Shown piece by piece: positions 51,380 to 61,312 of a stretch of 64,000 nucleotides of DNA; positions within the stretch are counted from its first letter, which is position 1, and every line of letters starts with the position of its first letter. The stretch spans positions 64,270 through 128,269 of the forward strand of contig JBFLWQ010000004.1 in the NCBI GenBank assembly GCA_040757775.1, given 5' to 3'. The notes below the pieces were generated by a model. The model saw only the letters and a list, made by a program, of their open reading frames with translations, ran no database searches and was not told the origin of the DNA. The position numbers were made by a program, and so were the translations under genes. Origin of the DNA: Thermodesulfobacteriota bacterium. Its GTDB lineage: Bacteria; Desulfobacterota; UBA8473.

Positions 51380-51724
51380 CTATATTTCTCTTTCTAACTT
51401 AGTGTTCCGTTGTTTTAGTATATTTCCCCAGTCAGGTAGGTATGCACTCATTAGACTTTTAAATAGCCTGCCATGATTAGGAATCTGTAAATGCAGCAGC
51501 TCGTGAATTATCACATATTTCTGAAAATCTATTGGTTCTTTAAGAAGATCGGTACTGAAGCATACCAACCCTTTTGAAGAACAGGATGCCCACTTCTTTT
51601 TCATAGTCTGAATTCTAAGCTGCCGGGGTCTAACTTTTATCTTTTCAACCCATCGGTTGACTTCAGCCTTAAATTCATCAAAATTATTTAGCCTTTCTTT
51701 ATGGTTACTTTTTTTCGGTGTCAT
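51380..51724 (-). CDS. YgjP-like metal-dependent hydrolase (DUF45) of the type I R-M locus
   Basis: A 114-residue protein with a zincin motif HELLH (74-78, catalytic E75) and third ligand region IPNHGRLF (H84), plus RIQTMKKKWASCSS before it. This is the YgjP/DUF45 fold, shorter than stand-alone YgjP (about 170-240 residues), and often found directly after hsdR. It overlaps hsdR by 4 bp. The role within restriction loci is unknown. Confidence 0.82.
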   Translation of the reverse strand: MTPKKSNHKERLNNFDEFKAEVNRWVEKIKVRPRQLRIQTMKKKWASCSSKGLVCFSTDLLKEPIDFQKYVIIHELLHLQIPNHGRLFKSLMSAYLPDWGNILKQRNTKLEREI

Positions 51725-54639
51725 TTGCGGTTCAGTTTCAAAAGTTTTTCAACTATCCCGACCATGCGTTCTTTTCCAAAAATGGGAAGTACCAGCTTGT
51801 AAAGTTCAGCCTTGAGTTCTCGCAGCTCTGCTGGATTGTCCTTAAAGTCCGGGAATCGTTCAAACACACTGTTAACTGCCGGTGCAATCTTTTTATGATT
51901 CTCTATCTTTTCTTGCTTGAGAATCCAGAAAATCGTAAATGTATTGATATCAAAGTCTGTTTCTTTCTGCTGTCGCCGGGCTTCAACAATCTCATGAATA
52001 AGCTCTTCGATTTTTTTTAGAGCTTGTTTAGTTGATATCTGCCGGTCATCGAATGCTTCCTGAATCTGCTCAGCACGCTCACCTATTGTCCTGAGGTATG
52101 GGTTTTCTTCTGCTTCATCGTTGACGGTTTTGCCGATGCTGTTTATCAGGTTTATTACCTTTGATTTGTCTGATGTACCGCTATCCTTTATTGCATGAAG
52201 AGTGTTTTCGTCAATCTTCACTACCGGCATTGTGGTCTTCAGCCCGTAGGTGGTGACCTTTTCCCGCACCAGCAGCTCGGTTTTTCTGGCGATATCACTA
52301 TATAAAACGGTCTTTTTTTTAAAGGCATTGTGGACAATCTGATAGAGTACAGAAAGCTTCCCAAAATCATCTACATAATCTCGCAAATCAGGCGATGGGG
52401 ATAATATTTCATAAAGCATTTCGAGCTCTTTGAAAAACTTGTAAAATTCTTCTCTTGCCTCTTGATCAACAAAAGCATCTATTGCAGCCTCGACTGCTTT
52501 GTCATCAATCATGCCGCGGGTCAGAGCAAGATACTTCTGAGCTTCACCGGTCATGAGATCAAAAAATTGTGCTTTAAGCACGTCAAGATTCTTGATAACA
52601 CCGCTTACCACGTCAGAATCAAAGGCGAGGGCCTTTTCCAGTTTTTCAAATATCCCCACAAAGTCTACCACCAGCCCGCAGGGTTTCTTGATGTCGCCTT
52701 CCTCCTCATAGGGACGATTTACCCTCGCAATGGCCTGCAGCAGCACATGATCTCTCATGGGCTTATCGAGATACATGCCGTAAAGTATTGGGGCATCAAA
52801 ACCGGTCAGGAGTTTATCGGTAACAATAAATATCTTGGGTATGGTTTTCGGTTTGGGGAAAAGCTTACGGGCATTTTTTTCCTCAATCTCTGAGAGCTGG
52901 TATTTATGCACCAGAGGATATTTTTCACTGTCATGTTGGGTGGCAGTGTATACCGGTAAGGTGTATTCGGGAGGCAGAATCTTATCAAGTTCCTCTTTAT
53001 ACAGCGCGCAGGCCTCACGGTCAACTGCTACAAGAAATGCCTTATAACCCAAAGGTTCAATAGATTCCTTGAAATGCTGAGCAACAAAGGCAGAAACCTT
53101 TCTTATCCTGTCTTCTGATTTTAAAAATGTTTTGAGATTGACTGCCTTATCAAGAATTTTGTTCAGTTCTTCAACATCACTGATCCCTTCAGCATCTATC
53201 AGTTCAAGGAATTCTTTTTCGAGCTGCTCCCGAGGCACACGAATATCATTGGGCGCAAGCGTATAATTGAGCGAAAGGGTTGTGCCGTCTTCTATAGACT
53301 CGGCGATAGAGTATTTATCCAAATAGCCGGTTTTGTCCTCTTTACCGAAAATCTTGAATGTGCCCTTACCGTATGCTGTTTTGTCAATCGGGGTGCCGGT
53401 AAATCCAATCAGGGTTGCATTGGGGAGAGCTCCTACCATGTAGTTTCCGAGGTCCCTTCCTAAAGACCGGTGCGCTTCATCCACCAGCACAATAACATTA
53501 TCCCTGGTACAGATACCCTTATCGATTCTCTCAAACTTATGAATCATGGAGATGATCAGCCCGCGGAAATCTGATACAAGTAACTCCCTCAGACGTGCCT
53601 TGCTGGTAGCAGGTTCAATGCTAATATCAAATGATTTTAATTCACCAAGTATCCGCTCCACCCATCCAGAAAGCTGTCCTTCAAGCTCATTGCGGTCAAT
53701 CATCAGAATAACCGTTGCTTTACCGAAAACCTCCTTGTTTGTAAGAATCTGCCGCGCCGCAGTAATCATGGTAAAGGTTTTCCCTGCCCCCTGGGTATGC
53801 CACACTAGCCCGGTCTTCTTGCCCCTATCAGCACACCGCTGCACTACCTTCTCAACCGCCCGGGTCTGATGCTGTCGCAAAATTGTTTTTTTCAGCTCAT
53901 CATCCTTCACATAAAACAGTATCCACTCTTTCAACATCTTCAGGAACCGTTCCCTGTCAAAAAAGTGTTTAACCTTTTTCTCAAAATTTCCCTTCTCTTC
54001 ATCTTTCCAGTTAAAGATATCCTTGCGTTCAAGGTTCCATGTGGAGCCGTAATAAAAGTCAATTAAGTGGGTGATGTCAAACACCTGCGGAGCAGTAAGC
54101 ATCTCCGGTGTTTCATTGTGATATTCCCGTATCTGAATCAAAGCCTCCTCAATAGCATTTGCCTTCTTGGCGCTTTTGGTTTCAACAATGGCAACCGGTA
54201 TGCCATTAATAAGAAACATGATGTCTGCCCGGTTTGTTTCTCTGCCGTTGGCATACTGCCATTCATCAGTAACCTGAAAAATATTTTTCGTAACATCCTT
54301 AAAATCAACCACCGTTATATTCCGGCGCCGCTTCTCTTTTTCATCATAGATACTCTGCTCACCCCGCAACCATGATAGGACCTCTGCATTCCCTTCGATG
54401 TTGTTACGCACCGCCTCTATATCTCTAACAATTTCAGGAGCGCTTTCCCCGGTCACCAATCCAGGGTTCAGTTTGATAAGTTTATCTTGAATGACGCGGT
54501 AAAACAGTGTCCCGTTTTCCCCCATTCTTAATGTAAGGGCATCGTCGCTTGAAACGATCTGCCAACCGATCTCACTTGCATATTTGATGATCGGCTGCTG
54601 AACAGTGGATGTTTCGGTACCAAGGTTTACAGGCATCAT
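51721..54639 (-). CDS. hsdR: Type I restriction enzyme, R subunit
   Basis: A 972-residue motor and nuclease. The N-terminal PD-(D/E)xK nuclease is seen as NRADIMFLINGIPVAIVETKSAKK (catalytic D, E-x-K). The SF2 translocase follows: Walker A HTQGAGKTF, DEAH in VLVDEAHRSLGRDLG, motif III GFTGTP, and motif V/VI TDKLLTGFDAP and QAIARVNRPY. A helical C-terminal region of about 250 residues binds the methylase. It starts 45 bp after the ORF6N-like gene, and its leader is part of a 55-bp direct repeat (54636-54690). Confidence 0.95.
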   Translation of the reverse strand: MMPVNLGTETSTVQQPIIKYASEIGWQIVSSDDALTLRMGENGTLFYRVIQDKLIKLNPGLVTGESAPEIVRDIEAVRNNIEGNAEVLSWLRGEQSIYDEKEKRRRNITVVDFKDVTKNIFQVTDEWQYANGRETNRADIMFLINGIPVAIVETKSAKKANAIEEALIQIREYHNETPEMLTAPQVFDITHLIDFYYGSTWNLERKDIFNWKDEEKGNFEKKVKHFFDRERFLKMLKEWILFYVKDDELKKTILRQHQTRAVEKVVQRCADRGKKTGLVWHTQGAGKTFTMITAARQILTNKEVFGKATVILMIDRNELEGQLSGWVERILGELKSFDISIEPATSKARLRELLVSDFRGLIISMIHKFERIDKGICTRDNVIVLVDEAHRSLGRDLGNYMVGALPNATLIGFTGTPIDKTAYGKGTFKIFGKEDKTGYLDKYSIAESIEDGTTLSLNYTLAPNDIRVPREQLEKEFLELIDAEGISDVEELNKILDKAVNLKTFLKSEDRIRKVSAFVAQHFKESIEPLGYKAFLVAVDREACALYKEELDKILPPEYTLPVYTATQHDSEKYPLVHKYQLSEIEEKNARKLFPKPKTIPKIFIVTDKLLTGFDAPILYGMYLDKPMRDHVLLQAIARVNRPYEEEGDIKKPCGLVVDFVGIFEKLEKALAFDSDVVSGVIKNLDVLKAQFFDLMTGEAQKYLALTRGMIDDKAVEAAIDAFVDQEAREEFYKFFKELEMLYEILSPSPDLRDYVDDFGKLSVLYQIVHNAFKKKTVLYSDIARKTELLVREKVTTYGLKTTMPVVKIDENTLHAIKDSGTSDKSKVINLINSIGKTVNDEAEENPYLRTIGERAEQIQEAFDDRQISTKQALKKIEELIHEIVEARRQQKETDFDINTFTIFWILKQEKIENHKKIAPAVNSVFERFPDFKDNPAELRELKAELYKLVLPIFGKERMVGIVEKLLKLNRK

Positions 54640-54690
54640 GATTTAACTCGAATATCTATGTGGCGTTTGAATGTTTTACAAAGTTTATCC
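54636..54690. repeat. Direct repeat, copy A (hsdR start side)
   Basis: About 82 percent identical to 55271-55326 in the same orientation: both have CATRATTTAACTCGAATA then TTTGAATGTTTT. The two copies flank the ORF6N gene and each contains an ATG-containing start region on the minus strand. Confidence 0.6.
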
Positions 54691-55167
54691 TTGCCTTTTC
54701 TTGGCCTTTCCACCGTAGGAAACTCTTTGTTCCTTCACCTCAAAACCAATCCTTTTTCTTGGTTTTTCAGGAGGCTGCATTAAGGCGCGGATGGCATCAA
54801 AAACAATTTTAAATTGATCGTCATATTTCTTTTCCAGTTCTTTTATTTTAAATTCAAGGTCTTTGTGTACAGTTAACATCTGTCGGAGACTGACGAATGC
54901 TCGCATAATTTCGACATTGACATCTATTGCTCGTTCACTTTTTAGCACACTCGACAGCATTGCCACTCCCTGTTCTGTAAATGCTCTCGGCAGTACAGAA
55001 GAGTGTTTGAGTCGCCGTAACCGGTCACAATTTGTGACCAGTTCATCTTTTTCCTTTTTTGTCAGCCGAAACATAAAATCTGCTGGAAATCTTCGCGCGT
55101 TTCGTGAGACAGCCTGATTTAGAACTTTTGTTGCCACACTGTAAAGGGTGGCGAGATCAATATCCAA
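54685..55167 (-). CDS. ORF6N-domain protein (KilA-N-like), 5' end damaged
   Basis: A 160-residue frame from a TTG at 55167: MDIDLATLYSVATKVLNQAV, then RFPADFMFRLTKKE and VLPRAFTEQGVAMLSSVL, the phage-type ORF6N DNA-binding domain, followed by a coiled-coil C-terminus (VHKDLEFKIKELEKKYDD). Homologous residues continue upstream in the same frame (IFLIRGQRVIL) to a TGA at 55252 with no usual start codon, so the N-terminus is damaged or uses a rare start. A separate short frame beginning MISDNKNEIIIYR (ATG at 55274), resembling the start of RhuM proteins, ends inside this region. The whole cassette lies between direct repeats. Confidence 0.7.
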   Translation of the reverse strand: MDIDLATLYSVATKVLNQAVSRNARRFPADFMFRLTKKEKDELVTNCDRLRRLKHSSVLPRAFTEQGVAMLSSVLKSERAIDVNVEIMRAFVSLRQMLTVHKDLEFKIKELEKKYDDQFKIVFDAIRALMQPPEKPRKRIGFEVKEQRVSYGGKAKKRQG

Positions 55168-55270
55168 TATTACTCTTTGTCCACGAATTAAAAAAATTGC
55201 CTGCTCAATTATTTTTACTGGGGCTGTCGTACCTTCCGATAGATAATAATTTCATTTTTATTGTCTGAAA

Positions 55271-55326
55271 TCATAATTTAACTCGAATAGCTACGGGGCT
55301 TTTGAATGTTTTGCGAAAGACTATCC
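55271..55326. repeat. Direct repeat, copy B (upstream of ORF6N)
   Basis: Partner of 54636-54690. Together they bracket about 580 bp carrying the ORF6N frame, consistent with insertion or duplication of this cassette into the R-M operon. Confidence 0.6.
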
Positions 55327-55408: not shown

Positions 55409-55927
55409 CTATTTTAGTTTAGCCAAGTAAATAAATTCCTGGCAGACAGTTCGGAAATCAGGTATCAGCTTATCAATATCCTCCCTGTGGGCGTTGTATC
55501 GACGGCTGTGCGCAGATTGATCACCAATGGACTTCAGGCTTGGTAATGCTCTTTTTGTGTTGCGTCCTAGATTCCATAATGGTTCCTGAAGTGCCTTGGA
55601 AATAAGGTCAGAAAGGTAGAGAAAATCACCGGTTTTATGATCTTTGATCTTGTGAGCTAGGTTGTGGGCTTCGAAAGACTCGATGATTAGAGTTTCCAGG
55701 AGTCTCCGCATCATAACGGCACAGCCATCGAACCAGCCATTTTCATAACACCCATTGATTTGGTCAACTACCCGCTCGATATACCCTCGGGTATTTGTGA
55801 ACAGAGCGCGTGGGAGAACGCTCTGACTTCGTGGACGCGTTCCTTCTGAGGGAGGAACGTAGGTTACGGGTGCCTCCGATTGGATCTTCTTTGCTATTTC
55901 GAGCACTTGGCGAGCGAGTGATGCCAT
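55409..55927 (-). CDS. HEPN/DUF4145-like protein of the R-M island
   Basis: A 172-residue mostly helical protein. The block NGCYENGWFDGCAVMMRRLLETLIIESFE, then LGRNTKRALPSLKSIGDQSAHSRRYNAHREDIDKL resembles DUF4145-type HEPN domains, where a basic and polar motif lies in the last helices. It starts 6 bp after the DUF5343-like gene and is almost certainly co-expressed with it. HEPN proteins in defence loci are often RNases; the RxxxxH motif is not clear here (RRYNAH is the nearest), so activity is uncertain. Confidence 0.6.
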   Translation of the reverse strand: MASLARQVLEIAKKIQSEAPVTYVPPSEGTRPRSQSVLPRALFTNTRGYIERVVDQINGCYENGWFDGCAVMMRRLLETLIIESFEAHNLAHKIKDHKTGDFLYLSDLISKALQEPLWNLGRNTKRALPSLKSIGDQSAHSRRYNAHREDIDKLIPDFRTVCQEFIYLAKLK

Positions 55928-55933
55928 TGGTCA

Positions 55934-56605
55934 TTATTTCCTGTATATATGTTTTGCAATACTCTCAAATATCTTGTCTATCTGGTCTGGCGTCGCGTCT
56001 GACGAGATATGAATCTGCAGGTTGATGTTTACTCCCGGCAAGGCGGGAGTATCACCTAGAGAGGGCACGGGATGGATGGCTTGTGAAGTACTCGATGGAG
56101 CGGATTTCTTCTTATCGGCTTTGGCAGTACCCTTCCGTGTGGTGGCACGCTCCTTTTGCCTTTCCTTCTGTAGTTTTTTCGATACGTCGCCTTCAGAGAT
56201 GACTGTATATATTGCGGCCATGCGTTTGACTGCCGCACTTCCAGCGCCGGTATGGTTGGCAAACCATCGTTCTGCGGCGCTGCGATCTATGGACGGATTT
56301 GGCACTGCGGCAATTAACTCATCAGGATAAATTTCCTTACGTATCTTTCGGCAGACCTCAGCATATTGCTCATCGTCACGCCACGCTTTCGCCAATTCCT
56401 GAGTTTTTCCTTCGTTGTCAATCAGACCCATATCCTTCAAATATGGAAGCACATTAGTGCGGGCAGACATGGGCTGCGTGCTAAGTGCAGTGGCAAGGTA
56501 ATTATCCGTTACGACGCCGGGCATGCTCTGCCTGAACCGTTCCCGGAGTGTCCACCAGTGCGCAACCGGGAGCATTGGAAATGATTGCGGTTTCTCTTTT
56601 GCCAT
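55934..56605 (-). CDS. DUF5343-like protein of the R-M island
   Basis: A 223-residue protein. AHWWTLRERFRQSMPGVVTDNYLATAL and SARTNVLPYLKDMGLID match the winged-helix-like DUF5343 start. A basic, low-complexity linker (ERQKERATTRKGTAKADKKKS) leads to a C-terminal strand-helix unit NLQIHISSDATPDQIDKIFESIAKHIY that resembles an oligomerisation or partner domain. It forms a two-gene unit with the HEPN-like gene between hsdS and hsdR. The function of DUF5343 is unknown. Confidence 0.65.
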   Translation of the reverse strand: MAKEKPQSFPMLPVAHWWTLRERFRQSMPGVVTDNYLATALSTQPMSARTNVLPYLKDMGLIDNEGKTQELAKAWRDDEQYAEVCRKIRKEIYPDELIAAVPNPSIDRSAAERWFANHTGAGSAAVKRMAAIYTVISEGDVSKKLQKERQKERATTRKGTAKADKKKSAPSSTSQAIHPVPSLGDTPALPGVNINLQIHISSDATPDQIDKIFESIAKHIYRK

Positions 56606-56709: not shown

Positions 56710-56819
56710 CTCGCAACCTAAAGGTTGCGGCTACCTACTACTACCAATTTTGTGTACTTATGTTGTTTCCCCAAATATGGTAGCCGCAGGCTTGGTAGCC
56801 GCAGGCTTCAGCCTGCGGA
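56710..56819. repeat. Dispersed palindromes, GGTAGCCGCAGGCTTCAGCCTGCGG type
   Basis: Two related elements: CTCGCAACCTAAAGGTTGCGG (56710-56730) and a tandem GGTAGCCGCAGGCTT with inverse CAGCCTGCGG (56779-56819). The second provides the last codons and stop of hsdS (ESAG). Confidence 0.6.
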
Positions 56820-57992
56820 TTCTTCCGATAAATCAACCTCCAAATCCCTCACCCTAATCTCTCCGGTCATCAGTTTGTTCAGCATGGTTTTGAACAGGTC
56901 TTGAAGGGCAGATTTCTTTTCCTCGCAAAGTTGTATCTTTTCCTCAAGTGTTTTAAGAATATGAGCAATTTCCAATTGATCGTTAACGGTCGGAAGAGGA
57001 ACGGCAAATTTTTTTAAGGAAGCCCATGATGTTCTCGGATGATTTAATCCCCCTGTTGTTTGGATAGCATAGTCAAGAAATTTTTGTAAATGCAATAATC
57101 CTACAATGAAGACCGCCGGAACATCTTTCGCCGGAGTTAAAACCAAAATATCCGTTGAACAAATGCCATAATTATTAACAACCACAGCTTTATCCAAATA
57201 GGGCCGAAGCTTACCGTAAAGTATGTCATTAGGTGCAAACTGATGTTTAGCGCTCTGAACCTCAGATGGTGAGCCGTGTCGCTTCAAGAAAAATCTCCCA
57301 GACTCAATGTGTTCCAAGCCAATATAGACTTTGGTTTGACATTCATTAGGAACACAAGTTTCTTTTTTAAGTACACACAATTTCTCCAAAGTACCAACCT
57401 CCCAACTCTCCGGTATCCTACCGATCTCCGTCTCCTTGGTTTTTTCACCTCGCAAGCCATAGGTAAAGACATGCTGCATGGTTGATTTTTTCAGTTCTTG
57501 CAGGCGCTCGATAATGGATTCCTGAACCTCAATTGCCTGTTGAATTTTAAAAAGAATGGCAGCGATTTTTTGCTGTTCGGGGAGAGAAGGGAGAAGACAT
57601 TCAAGCTTGTAAACATCTTCTCTGTTTAAACCCGGAATGGTGCTATGCAAGTTCATCTCGCACAATCCAAAGGTGCTCAAGAAAAAAGCCATAAAGCGCC
57701 AATCATGATCTTTCCTTAAAGCAACATAATAAGTGGTGTCTATAGGCCAGAAGTCAGATGTTGAGAAATGCACAGCGCCACAGGAACCTTTCCGGCCAAC
57801 AATAATGCCTGGGCCATTTACTAACGCTTCATTGTGGAACCCAACAACCCCATTCGAGCCAAAAACAGGATGGTCCCCTGCTAACCTGTCATTCTTTGGC
57901 AAAGCCTTGCCATATTGCAGCGATATTTCATTACCTAAATAGGTCTTTATCCAGTCAGATCGCATCTCATTATTTCCCTTGCTTAATTCCAA
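56808..57992 (-). CDS. hsdS: Type I restriction enzyme, specificity subunit
   Basis: A 394-residue DNA-recognition subunit with two target-recognition domains. TRD1 (about 12-150) has DHPVFGSNGVVGFHNEAL and is followed by the first conserved coiled coil, LPEQQKIAAILFKIQQAIEVQESIIERL. TRD2 (about 195-340) has NDILYGKLRPYLDK and is followed by the second coil ending FKTMLNKLMTGEIRV. Each TRD reads half of a bipartite site. Its last three codons come from a dispersed palindrome (56779-56819). Confidence 0.93.
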   Translation of the reverse strand: MELSKGNNEMRSDWIKTYLGNEISLQYGKALPKNDRLAGDHPVFGSNGVVGFHNEALVNGPGIIVGRKGSCGAVHFSTSDFWPIDTTYYVALRKDHDWRFMAFFLSTFGLCEMNLHSTIPGLNREDVYKLECLLPSLPEQQKIAAILFKIQQAIEVQESIIERLQELKKSTMQHVFTYGLRGEKTKETEIGRIPESWEVGTLEKLCVLKKETCVPNECQTKVYIGLEHIESGRFFLKRHGSPSEVQSAKHQFAPNDILYGKLRPYLDKAVVVNNYGICSTDILVLTPAKDVPAVFIVGLLHLQKFLDYAIQTTGGLNHPRTSWASLKKFAVPLPTVNDQLEIAHILKTLEEKIQLCEEKKSALQDLFKTMLNKLMTGEIRVRDLEVDLSEESAG

Positions 57993-58000
57993 TCTTCATT

Positions 58001-58246
58001 TTATTCAACTTCCCAATACCCGCCTTTATCCGGGCCGATACGTTTTAACCTTCCTTCCTTTTTTAACTTGGCTATGTGAACCTTTATTGTGTTCGGACTT
58101 GTACCCAGCAGCGATGCTATATCATGCCTCGTTACTTTTGGATTATTCTTCATCACCGCTATAATTTTCTCGTCAAATGTCATTTTCTGGGTATCTTTCT
58201 GGGTGGCCTTGAACACCGTTACCCTGAACCCCTCGACACCGTTCAT
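58001..58246 (-). pseudogene. Winged-helix C-terminal fragment of a larger regulator
   Basis: An 81-codon frame with KATQKDTQKMTFDEKIIAVMK and ITRHDIASLLG-type helices, ending KRIGPDKGGYWEV. This is the usual C-terminal winged helix of AlbA_2/RecG-like ATP-binding transcriptional regulators, whose large N-terminal part is missing. The first 10 codons come from a dispersed repeat at 58219-58266. It ends 9 bp before hsdS. It may be a decayed gene or still make a small DNA-binding protein. Confidence 0.6.
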
Positions 58247-58359: not shown

Positions 58360-58995
58360 TTACAATTCAGATGGTGGCCATAAGCCCTCCCTTTTTACCC
58401 TGATTTCGATAACGTCTGTTGAAATTCCAAAAGGTCTACACAACGTTGGCGAAATTCGTGATAATACTGCGTCAGAATCAGTTTTCATAAAGGTGGTTAA
58501 ATTATTTTTCTTTATGGTTTCATAGGATTTATTTACTTCTACTGCCAGATGCGCGTGGGGCACCAGCAAGCGTCCTGCAAATTCATTGGCCTGCCATTCA
58601 AAGCTGCGATATTCATTTTCCGGCACATTGAGAATAAAGTTTTTCCACTCCTCCGGTGATGTAACATCGAGTCTTGTATAGATATCCCTGTGGAGAAAAA
58701 GGTGTCCCAGTTCATGGGCAAATGAAAAACGCATGCGGTTTGCAAATTTCTCACTCATATAACAGTCATAATCTACTACGATTCCCGTTAAGTCCATTTT
58801 TAAATAGGCGTCTATATCAATCGTAGACAGAAGGTTATGTATTGGTTCGATATCCAGTCTGAGCCCGAACTCCACAATTTTTTCCGTATTGATCGGTAAC
58901 TTGTTGTCGTGCCAGTATTCTTCTCGAACCCTATCCGCTTTTTCCCAGAGTTCTTTTGAATCAATCCACCTGCACTTGAACTCACTATAATCCAA
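58360..58995 (-). CDS. ImmA/IrrE-family metallopeptidase
   Basis: A 211-residue protein with zinc motif HELGH (94-98) in FSFAHELGHLFLH. A further acidic residue region WQANEFAGRLLVP follows, as in ImmA and IrrE, which cleave the repressor encoded beside them. It starts 1 bp after the XRE stop, so the two are translated together. In this context it probably relieves repression by the adjacent XRE protein; the trigger is unknown. Confidence 0.88.
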   Translation of the reverse strand: MDYSEFKCRWIDSKELWEKADRVREEYWHDNKLPINTEKIVEFGLRLDIEPIHNLLSTIDIDAYLKMDLTGIVVDYDCYMSEKFANRMRFSFAHELGHLFLHRDIYTRLDVTSPEEWKNFILNVPENEYRSFEWQANEFAGRLLVPHAHLAVEVNKSYETIKKNNLTTFMKTDSDAVLSRISPTLCRPFGISTDVIEIRVKREGLWPPSEL

Positions 58996-58996
58996 A

Positions 58997-59362
58997 TTAC
59001 TCTTTCCCCTTTTTTATCATCTGAATTAATTTTTCTAAGTCTTCCAGGGTAGGTTTTTCACTCCTGAGCGTTCTGAAAAACATGGGCAAAGAATTTAATG
59101 CCTTTGTATCAGATAGAATGTCCTGAGGGATAACGCCAGCAGTGATACTTGCCTTGTCTTTCATTTCCCTCCACAAGACCGATTCGAATTCAATATCCAG
59201 CGCCAGAGCAATTTTTTTTAATTTTCCCTCATCCTGAGGAGGTGCAAGCACACCGCGCTCCACTTTACTCCAATTGCTGGCATCTACTTCAATCATTTTG
59301 CAAAACTCTCTCAGGCCCAGCCCCTTGCTTAGCCTCTTCTCTTTAATAAATTCTCCAAACAT
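58997..59362 (-). CDS. XRE-family repressor paired with ImmA/IrrE peptidase
   Basis: A 121-residue protein. Residues 5-60 form an XRE helix-turn-helix (FIKEKRLSKGLGLREFCKMI and WSKVERGVLAPP). The C-terminal SLPMFFRTLRSEKPTLEDLEKLIQMI is the helical tail probably recognised by the peptidase. A dyad operator lies 50 bp upstream (59411-59436), so it is likely autoregulated. It lies directly after hsdM. Confidence 0.88.
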   Translation of the reverse strand: MFGEFIKEKRLSKGLGLREFCKMIEVDASNWSKVERGVLAPPQDEGKLKKIALALDIEFESVLWREMKDKASITAGVIPQDILSDTKALNSLPMFFRTLRSEKPTLEDLEKLIQMIKKGKE

Positions 59363-59467: not shown

Positions 59468-61288
59468 TTATTTTCCGAACCCCATCTTTCTGAAAATCTC
59501 TTGGAGCTCCTCATCTGCTTCATCTGCTTTCTTCTCCAGCCCCACAAGTTCTTCCAAAATTGCCGGAATGCTTCGGTAGGCTTCCTTTTCGGTAATATCA
59601 ACATATCGTGAGGGTGAAAGGTTATAATCATTGTCTGCTGCCTGCTCTCGCGTGATTACCTTTAAAAACCGTTCAATATCCTCACCTTTAATAAAAGCGT
59701 CTGCTATTTTACGGATACTTTCATCAGGAATATAGTTCTTTGGCTGCCCTTTCTTGAATTCCCGGCTGGCATTAACCAGGACAATTTTGCCCTTTCGTGC
59801 GGGCGGCTTGGCTTTATTGAATACTATGATTATTCCCGCAGCCGTGGTATTATAGAAAAGGTTATCCGGCAGTAAGATAACCCCTTCGATCAAATCATTA
59901 TCCACAAACCATTTGCGAATCTTTTTTTCTCGGTCCTCGGTCTTACTCCCGCTGCCCCGGGTAACTGCCCCGGTGTCAATGACAACTGCAGCACGGCCAT
60001 GATCATTCAACGATGCAACTGTATTTTGCAGCCATGCCCAGTCTGCTTTGCTGGTAGTAATACCGCCCTGGGATTCAAAACGGTCAAAAGGATCATTGTC
60101 ATATACTGCTGTATTAAAAGGCTGATTCCACATAGGATTTGAAACAACAATATCGAACTTCTTCAGGCTTGAATCAGACTGCTTGAATTTGGGATTGGTC
60201 ATGGAATTGCCGCGAACGATCTCGCCCTCCATGTCGTGGACCACCATATTCATCCGGGCAATAGCATAGCTCGAGCCGGTAAGCTCCTGTCCGTAGAGCT
60301 TTAAAGGACGCCGCACCTTGATTTCCCGTTCCTGTAGCGCAAGCTCGCACTTGATCAGAAGCCCGGCCGACCCGCAGGCATAGTCATAAACTTCCTCACC
60401 CTGACGCGGCCGCACAATATAGGCCATGAGCCACCCAACTTCTGTCGGCGTAAAAAACTCACCCGCACTCTGTCCCTGCCCCTCAGCAAATTTTCTCAAC
60501 AGATATTCATAGGCACGGCCAAGAAAATCCGGCTCTACATCATAGAGGCCAAGACGGTATCGGGGGTCAGAAATTGTTTCGATCACACCGGACAATGCAG
60601 CATCGCTGATTTCGCGCTCATTGTTGCGGGTTTCATTATAATCAACAATATCGATTACCCCGCTGAGATTCGGGTTATGCTTTGTAATAGCTCGCATGGT
60701 TATGGTTAGCTGTTCGCCAAGAGTTTTGGGCTTTCGGTCCCATGACCAGTCAAACTGCTCCCGGCCACTCACTACCGGCCACCGTGCCTCAGGTGGTATA
60801 AAGAAGCGCACCAAGCCGTGGTCAGCTTCAATAATTGAGAGGGCTGTCTCTTTGTCTCCATATCTTTCTGCTAACCGTTCAACCTCATCTTCGAATACAT
60901 CGGAAAGCCGTTTAATAAATATCAGGGGAAGGATATAATCCTTAAATTTGGGTGCATCCTTTTCCCCCCGAATAGAGCAGGCTGCGCTCCAGAGCATCTG
61001 CTCCATGGACTTTGTACTTAAAATATCCTCTTTGGATTTCCGGCGACGTCTAGATTGAAAGGTCTGGTTATTTTCACTATTTGTTAGCGCGCTTTGATCA
61101 ATGCCCGACTGCTCAATTAAGTCCAAAATAGCTTCTCTGGCTTTTCCCCGGGGGATTATCCTCTCGTTTTCCCAGCGGTTAACCGTCGCGAATGAAACGC
61201 CAAGTTTTGCTGCAAGCTCTTCCTGGCTCAAGTTCAGCATGACCCTCAGTTCTTTTACAACTTTACTTATGTCACGTATATCAAGCAT
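59468..61288 (-). CDS. hsdM: Type I restriction enzyme, M subunit with N-terminal XRE domain
   Basis: About 606 residues from the ATG at 61288, which follows GGAG; a GTG two codons earlier is also open. Residues about 5-60 form an XRE helix-turn-helix (LRVMLNLSQEELAAKLGVSFATVNRWENERIIP), followed by a basic linker (SRRRRKSKED). The usual HsdM helical domain (MEQMLWSAACSIRGEKDAPKFKDYILPLIFIKRLSD) and methylase follow: motif I YDYACGSAGLL, motif IV NPMWNQPF (for NPPF). It adds N6-methyladenine and forms the core of the R-M complex. The fused HTH suggests self-regulation at the palindrome at 61313-61324. Confidence 0.93.
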   Translation of the reverse strand: MLDIRDISKVVKELRVMLNLSQEELAAKLGVSFATVNRWENERIIPRGKAREAILDLIEQSGIDQSALTNSENNQTFQSRRRRKSKEDILSTKSMEQMLWSAACSIRGEKDAPKFKDYILPLIFIKRLSDVFEDEVERLAERYGDKETALSIIEADHGLVRFFIPPEARWPVVSGREQFDWSWDRKPKTLGEQLTITMRAITKHNPNLSGVIDIVDYNETRNNEREISDAALSGVIETISDPRYRLGLYDVEPDFLGRAYEYLLRKFAEGQGQSAGEFFTPTEVGWLMAYIVRPRQGEEVYDYACGSAGLLIKCELALQEREIKVRRPLKLYGQELTGSSYAIARMNMVVHDMEGEIVRGNSMTNPKFKQSDSSLKKFDIVVSNPMWNQPFNTAVYDNDPFDRFESQGGITTSKADWAWLQNTVASLNDHGRAAVVIDTGAVTRGSGSKTEDREKKIRKWFVDNDLIEGVILLPDNLFYNTTAAGIIIVFNKAKPPARKGKIVLVNASREFKKGQPKNYIPDESIRKIADAFIKGEDIERFLKVITREQAADNDYNLSPSRYVDITEKEAYRSIPAILEELVGLEKKADEADEELQEIFRKMGFGK

Positions 61289-61312
61289 ACCCACTCCGTA
61301 ATATATGTTATA

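What the first reader, a model, noticed from the sequence alone, without database searches (positions are those of the whole stretch)
55409..56605. DUF5343-like plus HEPN-like two-gene unit nested in a type I R-M operon
The two genes are 6 bp apart, lie between hsdS and hsdR, and neither is part of known type I enzymes. A DNA-binding-type partner with a HEPN-type partner is the arrangement of several abortive-infection systems. The RxxxxH catalytic motif is not obvious, so it may be a regulator or an inactive relative.
Basis: inference. Interest (0 to 1): 0.62.

Follow-up and report, generated by a model that had tools for sequence, protein, structure and literature searches.

The report
HTH–HEPN gene pair in restriction operon
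Two small linked genes, one for a probable DNA-binding protein and one for a protein with the fold of RNA-cutting toxins, sit as swappable cargo inside a bacterium's restriction operon; relatives of the first gene pair with three different toxin-type families, so it looks like a modular, probably antiviral, toxin-partner unit.

Summary
A (55934-56605, DUF5343) and B (55409-55927, DUF4145) are 6 bp apart between hsdS and hsdR. B is predicted with good confidence as a HEPN four-helix bundle. The A-B pair is a real, horizontally spread unit found in several phyla. Of 31 DUF5343 loci examined, 29 have a HEPN-family gene directly downstream, but from three unrelated HEPN families: DUF4145-type (as here), Hypoth_Ymh and HEPN_Swt1. 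The Swt1 version is PADLOC's candidate system PDC-M34. The window pair matches only half of it (A yes, B no).

The R-M link is not conserved. In related hsdM-S-R-YgjP operons the hsdS-hsdR gap is a cargo slot holding nothing, RhuM-Fic, a kinase-like gene, or MntA-HepT (a known HEPN toxin pair). Many other A-B copies stand among housekeeping genes; a few lie in prophages, near a type II methylase, or beside defence candidates.

B lacks the canonical Rx4-6H motif. It has K-x2-G-D-x3-H-x-R; the histidine never varies, while the K is N in one mobile-contig copy and R in another. Best reading: a two-gene toxin-partner (abortive-infection-like) module of HTH-HEPN type, in a new partner combination. 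Whether B is catalytic is open.

The parts
55934..56605 (-). Gene A: DUF5343 protein, 223 aa. Confident N-terminal helical domain (residues 14-138), disordered linker (147-195), conserved C-terminal segment INLQIHISSDATPDQIDKIFESIAKHIY with helix 206-221. Strong Shine-Dalgarno (AAAGGAGG).
   Evidence: Pfam PF17278 E=5.7e-6; PADLOC PDC-M34A E=3.3e-10; model; alignments A1/A8; upstream sequence
55409..55927 (-). Gene B: DUF4145-type HEPN protein, 172 aa; four-helix bundle; K132-x2-G-D-x3-H140-x-R142-R143, no conserved Rx4-6H.
   Evidence: Pfam PF13643 E=1.4e-5; AF2 pLDDT 87.5, pTM 0.76; Foldseek top hits are HEPN proteins; alignment A3
55928..55933 (-). 6-bp A-B junction (TAA | TGA CCA | ATG); spacing conserved in close relatives, which suggests translational coupling.
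56808..57992 (-). hsdS, upstream border of the cargo slot
   Evidence: Methylase_S E=1.2e-24
51721..54639 (-). hsdR, downstream border of the cargo slot; followed by YgjP-like metallopeptidase 51380-51724
   Evidence: SWI2_SNF2, HSDR_N; orthologue 90% identical in a congener
59468..61294 (-). hsdM with an N-terminal HTH_3 domain
54685..55167 (-). ORF6N-domain gene, further cargo in the same slot (PADLOC PDC-S05); no ATG start
   Evidence: ORF6N E=2.1e-23; PDC-S05 E=1.2e-50; frames
55238..55318 (-). Remnant of an older cargo: leader plus first codons (MISDNKNEIIIYR...) of a RhuM gene; 88% identical to the same remnant in the congener's slot
   Evidence: intact RhuM-Fic in the slot of L070

Best explanation
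A-B is a self-contained two-gene effector-partner module of HTH-HEPN type, working like a toxin-antitoxin or abortive-infection unit. A is made first, binds B (perhaps through its conserved C-terminal segment), holds it in check, and probably binds the operon's own DNA. When infection or loss of A frees B, B acts on RNA and stops growth. In this genome the module was picked up horizontally and dropped into the hsdS-hsdR cargo slot of a type I R-M operon, as MntA-HepT was in related operons. Shown: the pair, its conservation, the predicted HEPN fold of B, the exchange of HEPN partners and the slot turnover. Inferred: A-B binding, toxicity, RNA as the target, antiviral role.
For: A HEPN-family gene lies directly downstream in 29 of 31 DUF5343 loci examined: 19 DUF4145-type, 3 Hypoth_Ymh, 7 HEPN_Swt1. 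In a Pfam-seeded survey of 398 Pseudomonadota genomes all nine clear DUF5343 hits have one (partners of the earlier-found ones). The Ymh and Swt1 partners keep canonical RNxxxH / RxxIAH-type motifs, so the family's default partner looks like an active HEPN RNase. B folds as HEPN. B is better conserved than A (72-77% against 53-64% in close relatives), as often seen for toxin against antitoxin. The partner label needs 4 changes on the A tree, two being the least possible. The same slot in homologous operons holds MntA-HepT. Other A-B copies sit next to an integrase, a phage Rz gene, PDC-M36 genes, or one ORF away from an Eco57I-type methylase.
Against: B lacks the canonical Rx4-6H, and the basic residue at K132 is N in one relative (L105), so catalysis is doubtful. 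Foldseek E-values are weak (best 0.042), although the top matches are HEPN proteins. The fused A-B model shows no confident docking (pTM 0.40). Many relatives lie among housekeeping genes. No DUF5343 or B relative was found on 72,556 plasmids, where HepT is in 1,429, so it is not a typical plasmid-addiction module.
Confidence: 0.5

Rival explanations
1. B is a catalytically dead HEPN domain. A and B form an RNA- or DNA-sensing or regulatory complex (for example tuning expression of neighbouring genes or sensing phage RNA) rather than a toxin pair.
For: No conserved Rx4-6H in B, while Ymh and Swt1 partners have it. The arginine that other DUF4145 proteins carry 8 residues before the H is K in the window and most relatives, R in one and N in one. 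The 2013 HEPN survey reports inactive HEPN families proposed to bind RNA (PMC3710099).
Against: H140 is kept in all 22 B sequences, with E78, E83, R74 and R75 fixed in the 18-row alignment, a lot of polar conservation for a dead enzyme. The survey reports the RX4-6H motif as mostly conserved (80%) in DUF4145.
Confidence: 0.3
2. An ordinary horizontally moved regulatory pair with no defence role; its place in the R-M operon is accidental.
For: Most relatives are not next to R-M or other defence genes; neighbours include SecA, ArgJ, MetE and DNA polymerase III. DUF5343 occurs in only 2-3% of the genomes sampled in two phyla.
Against: The constant HTH-HEPN pairing across three HEPN families, prophage and R-M neighbours in other copies, and a slot that otherwise takes known toxin or defence genes.
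Confidence: 0.15
3. A PrrC-like guard: A-B is silenced by the R-M complex it sits with and is released when a phage blocks restriction.
For: Position inside the hsd operon; PrrC, a HEPN nuclease in an hsd operon, works this way (PMC3710099).
Against: The pair does not travel with R-M, has gaps of about 200 and 240 bp to hsdS and ORF6N, and has no ATPase part.
Confidence: 0.05

Closest known systems
PADLOC candidate system PDC-M34 (PDC-M34A DUF5343 + PDC-M34B HEPN_Swt1)
   Same: Homologous first gene, same order and tight spacing, HEPN-type second gene.
   Different: The second gene is a DUF4145-type HEPN that matches no PADLOC model and lacks Rx4-6H. PDC-M34 is itself only a candidate.
MntA-HepT toxin-antitoxin (HEPN RNase + nucleotidyltransferase)
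   Same: Two-gene HEPN unit, found in the same hsdS-hsdR slot of homologous operons.
   Different: Partner is DUF5343, not a nucleotidyltransferase; no RxxxxH in B.
DUF4145 HEPN proteins of R-M and McrBC neighbourhoods
   Same: B is a member by Pfam score and fold; the 2013 HEPN survey reports DUF4145 in operons with R-M and McrBC (PMC3710099).
   Different: B has the K-x2-G-D-x3-H-x-R form instead of R-x2-G-N-x3-H, and pairs with DUF5343.
PrrC (HEPN anticodon nuclease inside a type I R-M operon)
   Same: HEPN protein nested in an hsd operon.
   Different: No ABC-ATPase domain; two genes; not tied to R-M in relatives.

Membership tests
HEPN superfamily, DUF4145 branch (PF13643) | Profile match above curated cut-off | tested here: met
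   25.5 bits vs 23.1
HEPN superfamily, DUF4145 branch (PF13643) | HEPN four-helix fold | tested here: met
   AF2 pLDDT 87.5; Foldseek 2hsb prob 1.00 TMt 0.77, 2q00 prob 1.00 TMt 0.72, HepT chains below; E-values weak
HEPN superfamily, DUF4145 branch (PF13643) | Rx4-6H catalytic motif | tested here: not met
   G135 stands where Rx4H has its R; R142-x4-H147 is not conserved
HEPN superfamily, DUF4145 branch (PF13643) | RNase activity | not testable with these tools
   needs an assay
PADLOC PDC-M34 | PDC-M34A (DUF5343) | tested here: met
   E=3.3e-10 over residues 47-220
PADLOC PDC-M34 | PDC-M34B (Swt1-type HEPN) | tested here: not met
   B matches no PADLOC model at E<=0.1; no profile-profile similarity to Swt1 partners
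MntA-HepT toxin-antitoxin | Nucleotidyltransferase partner | tested here: not met
   A's only Pfam match above cut-off is DUF5343
Toxin-antitoxin / abortive infection (as function) | Toxic effector neutralised by partner; phage protection | not testable with these tools
   genomic inference only
Type I R-M enzyme component | Part of the conserved hsdMSR set | tested here: not met
   absent from seven homologous operons inspected and from the part of an eighth (L068) that was held

The most novel reading that the evidence does not exclude
DUF5343 is a general partner of interchangeable HEPN effectors, defining a modular family of HTH-HEPN defence modules. The DUF4145 branch seen here uses a non-canonical active site (K/R-x7-H-x-R) in place of Rx4-6H.
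Probability: 0.3. Interest if true: 0.68.

Novelty: new variant of a known kind. Interest (0 to 1): 0.5.

Why it matters
It links an uncharacterised family (DUF5343) to HEPN effectors in general, shows that one partner family combines with three HEPN families, and adds a branch that the PADLOC models used here see only by half. It also documents, in a congener pair, that the hsdS-hsdR gap of a type I R-M operon is repeatedly overwritten with defence-type cargo, leaving a fossil of the previous gene.

Tried and rejected
R142-x4-H147 as the catalytic motif: lost in L005, L018, L019, L035, L037. A stable link to type I R-M: no N6-methylase hit on the pair's contig in G097, G120 and G235, and none within 490 kb in G053. 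Direct homology of B to Ymh or Swt1 partners: hhalign probability 0.3%. A-B docking from a fused model read through the two stops: pTM 0.40, not usable. Solved-structure search by sequence: nothing significant for A, B or A's C-terminal segment. A dedicated promoter in front of A: the consensus scan found fewer sites than chance. Plasmid addiction: no plasmid hits, with a working control. Papers naming DUF5343 or PDC-M34: none in the library.

Full report
Observation. Two minus-strand ORFs, A (55934-56605, 223 aa) and B (55409-55927, 172 aa), lie 6 bp apart between hsdS and hsdR of a type I R-M operon. A just passes the Pfam threshold for DUF5343 and matches PADLOC PDC-M34A; B passes the threshold for DUF4145 and matches no PADLOC model. 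The operon order is hsdM (HTH-fused), HTH, M78 peptidase, small wHTH, hsdS, A, B, ORF6N gene, hsdR, YgjP.

The pair is real and mobile. A scan of species genomes with A gave 11 loci; ten of them have B directly downstream. Sampling of 297 genomes of the window's phylum, then of the phyla of L018 (Pseudomonadota) and L009, and a scan of viral contigs added more. In all, 19 distinct loci including the window carry A-B with gaps of -4 to +11 bp. The closest relatives of the window's A come from records labelled Planctomycetota, Myxococcota, Pseudomonadota and Binatota, while none of four congeners or three other family members has it. That points to horizontal transfer.

DUF5343 pairs with HEPN genes in general. 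More distant A proteins are followed by Hypoth_Ymh (L017, L020, L021) or HEPN_Swt1 proteins (L022, L039, L041, L042 by Pfam; L088-L090 by alignment), with RNxxxH or Rx4H motifs. The Swt1 proteins are PADLOC's PDC-M34B. Of 31 DUF5343 loci only two lack a HEPN neighbour: L036, where another gene follows, and L040, where A is a 69-aa fragment. Two further weak or partial Pfam hits (G498, G585) were not counted. Most of the 31 were found with the window's own A or a profile of its close kin and so lean towards its type; the Pfam-seeded survey does not, and there all nine clear hits have a HEPN partner, five Swt1 and four DUF4145. On a tree of A the partner label changes four times, two being the least possible; long branches make the placing of the Ymh rows unsure. 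The Ymh and Swt1 families show no sequence similarity to B by profile comparison. B-type HEPN domains also occur with other upstream proteins (L049, L106), so both halves seem exchangeable.

Structure. B alone (18 sequences) gives a four-helix bundle, pLDDT 87.5. Foldseek's first three hits in the PDB are an archaeal HEPN-domain protein (2hsb), a Sulfolobus protein (2q00) and a chain of the Shewanella SO_3166-SO_3165 complex, which I know as the HepT-MntA pair; HepT chains and Csm6' come lower. No hit has E<=0.001. In the fused model A's residues 14-138 are confident and helical, 147-195 disordered, and 206-221 a helix; relative placement is not reliable. A's matches are weak winged-helix ones (MarR-type, RuvB).

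Active site. Other DUF4145 proteins of the phylum read R-x2-G-N-x3-H (RWVGNDAAH, RIHGNKAAH) or K in place of R (KWIGNAGSH). B reads K132-x2-G-D-x3-H140-x-R142-R143. In the 18-sequence alignment K132, G135 and H140 are invariant, with R74, R75, E78 and E83. In four mobile-contig copies H140 is again kept, K132 is K, K, N and R, and D136 is D, D, N and H. Catalysis is therefore possible but unproven.

The cargo slot. HsdR relatives led to homologous operons. The hsdS-hsdR gap is empty in L072; holds RhuM-Fic in L070, a kinase-like gene and others in L069, a transposase-like gene in L071, and MntA-HepT in L074. In L073 MntA-HepT lies between hsdM and hsdR, with no hsdS called there. In the congener G075 (L068, HsdR 90% identical, same sucCD neighbours) the region upstream of hsdR holds different genes; hsdS itself was not reached on that contig. 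Both the window and the congener carry the start of a broken RhuM gene at 88% identity (window 55238-55318; L068 1705-1780), and a 48-bp leader is duplicated at 54635 and 55270 in the window. So A-B is one layer in a repeatedly overwritten slot, not an R-M subunit.

Context elsewhere. Neighbours of 14 other A-B loci include many housekeeping genes. Exceptions: L010 (followed by PDC-M36A; two PDC-M36B matches in the pooled neighbours), L014 (DrmD/BrxHI-like helicase), L105 (an unidentified ORF, then an Eco57I-type methylase), L103 (integrase; AriA-like ATPase), L104 (phage Rz). The pooled tallies show only the top 25 families, so single defence genes may be missed. On plasmids the pair was not found at all, with a HepT control positive in 1,429 records.

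Verdict. The link to R-M is local cargo insertion. I place it as a new variant of HTH-HEPN two-gene modules, closest to PDC-M34. That PDC names stand for computed defence candidates, and that antitoxins tend to evolve faster than toxins, are from my own knowledge.

Noticed in passing
window 54635-54682 and 55270-55317: A 48-nt sequence covering the hsdR start and leader is repeated (85%) ahead of the ORF6N gene, next to a broken RhuM start; possible recombination points for cargo exchange.
   Followed up: partly
window 58360-59362: HTH gene plus M78 (IrrE/ImmA-like) peptidase gene between hsdM and hsdS, with weak capH/capP matches; absent between hsdM and hsdS in the homologous operons L069, L070, L072 and L074. 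Possibly a stress-controlled switch.
   Followed up: no
window 58001-58246: 81-aa winged-helix ORF just upstream of hsdS; looks like the C-terminal remnant of a larger AlbA/Schlafen-type gene, but no clear match to those in L069 or L071 was found.
   Followed up: partly
window 54685-55240: ORF6N gene has no ATG; homologous sequence continues upstream of the called TTG start, so it may be truncated or use a rare start.
   Followed up: partly
L049 1489-2752 and L106 4206-5447: B-type HEPN proteins with an extended N-terminus, preceded by an unrelated small protein instead of DUF5343; L106 lies close to a phage integrase.
   Followed up: partly
L105 4273-8052: A-B followed by an unidentified ORF and an Eco57I-type methylase, with an integrase-like ORF further on: a second, independent R-M-type neighbourhood.
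   Followed up: partly
G000 C34:3177-3440 and C6:114397-114660: Two further DUF4145 proteins in the window's genome, one inside a 1137-aa open frame.
   Followed up: no
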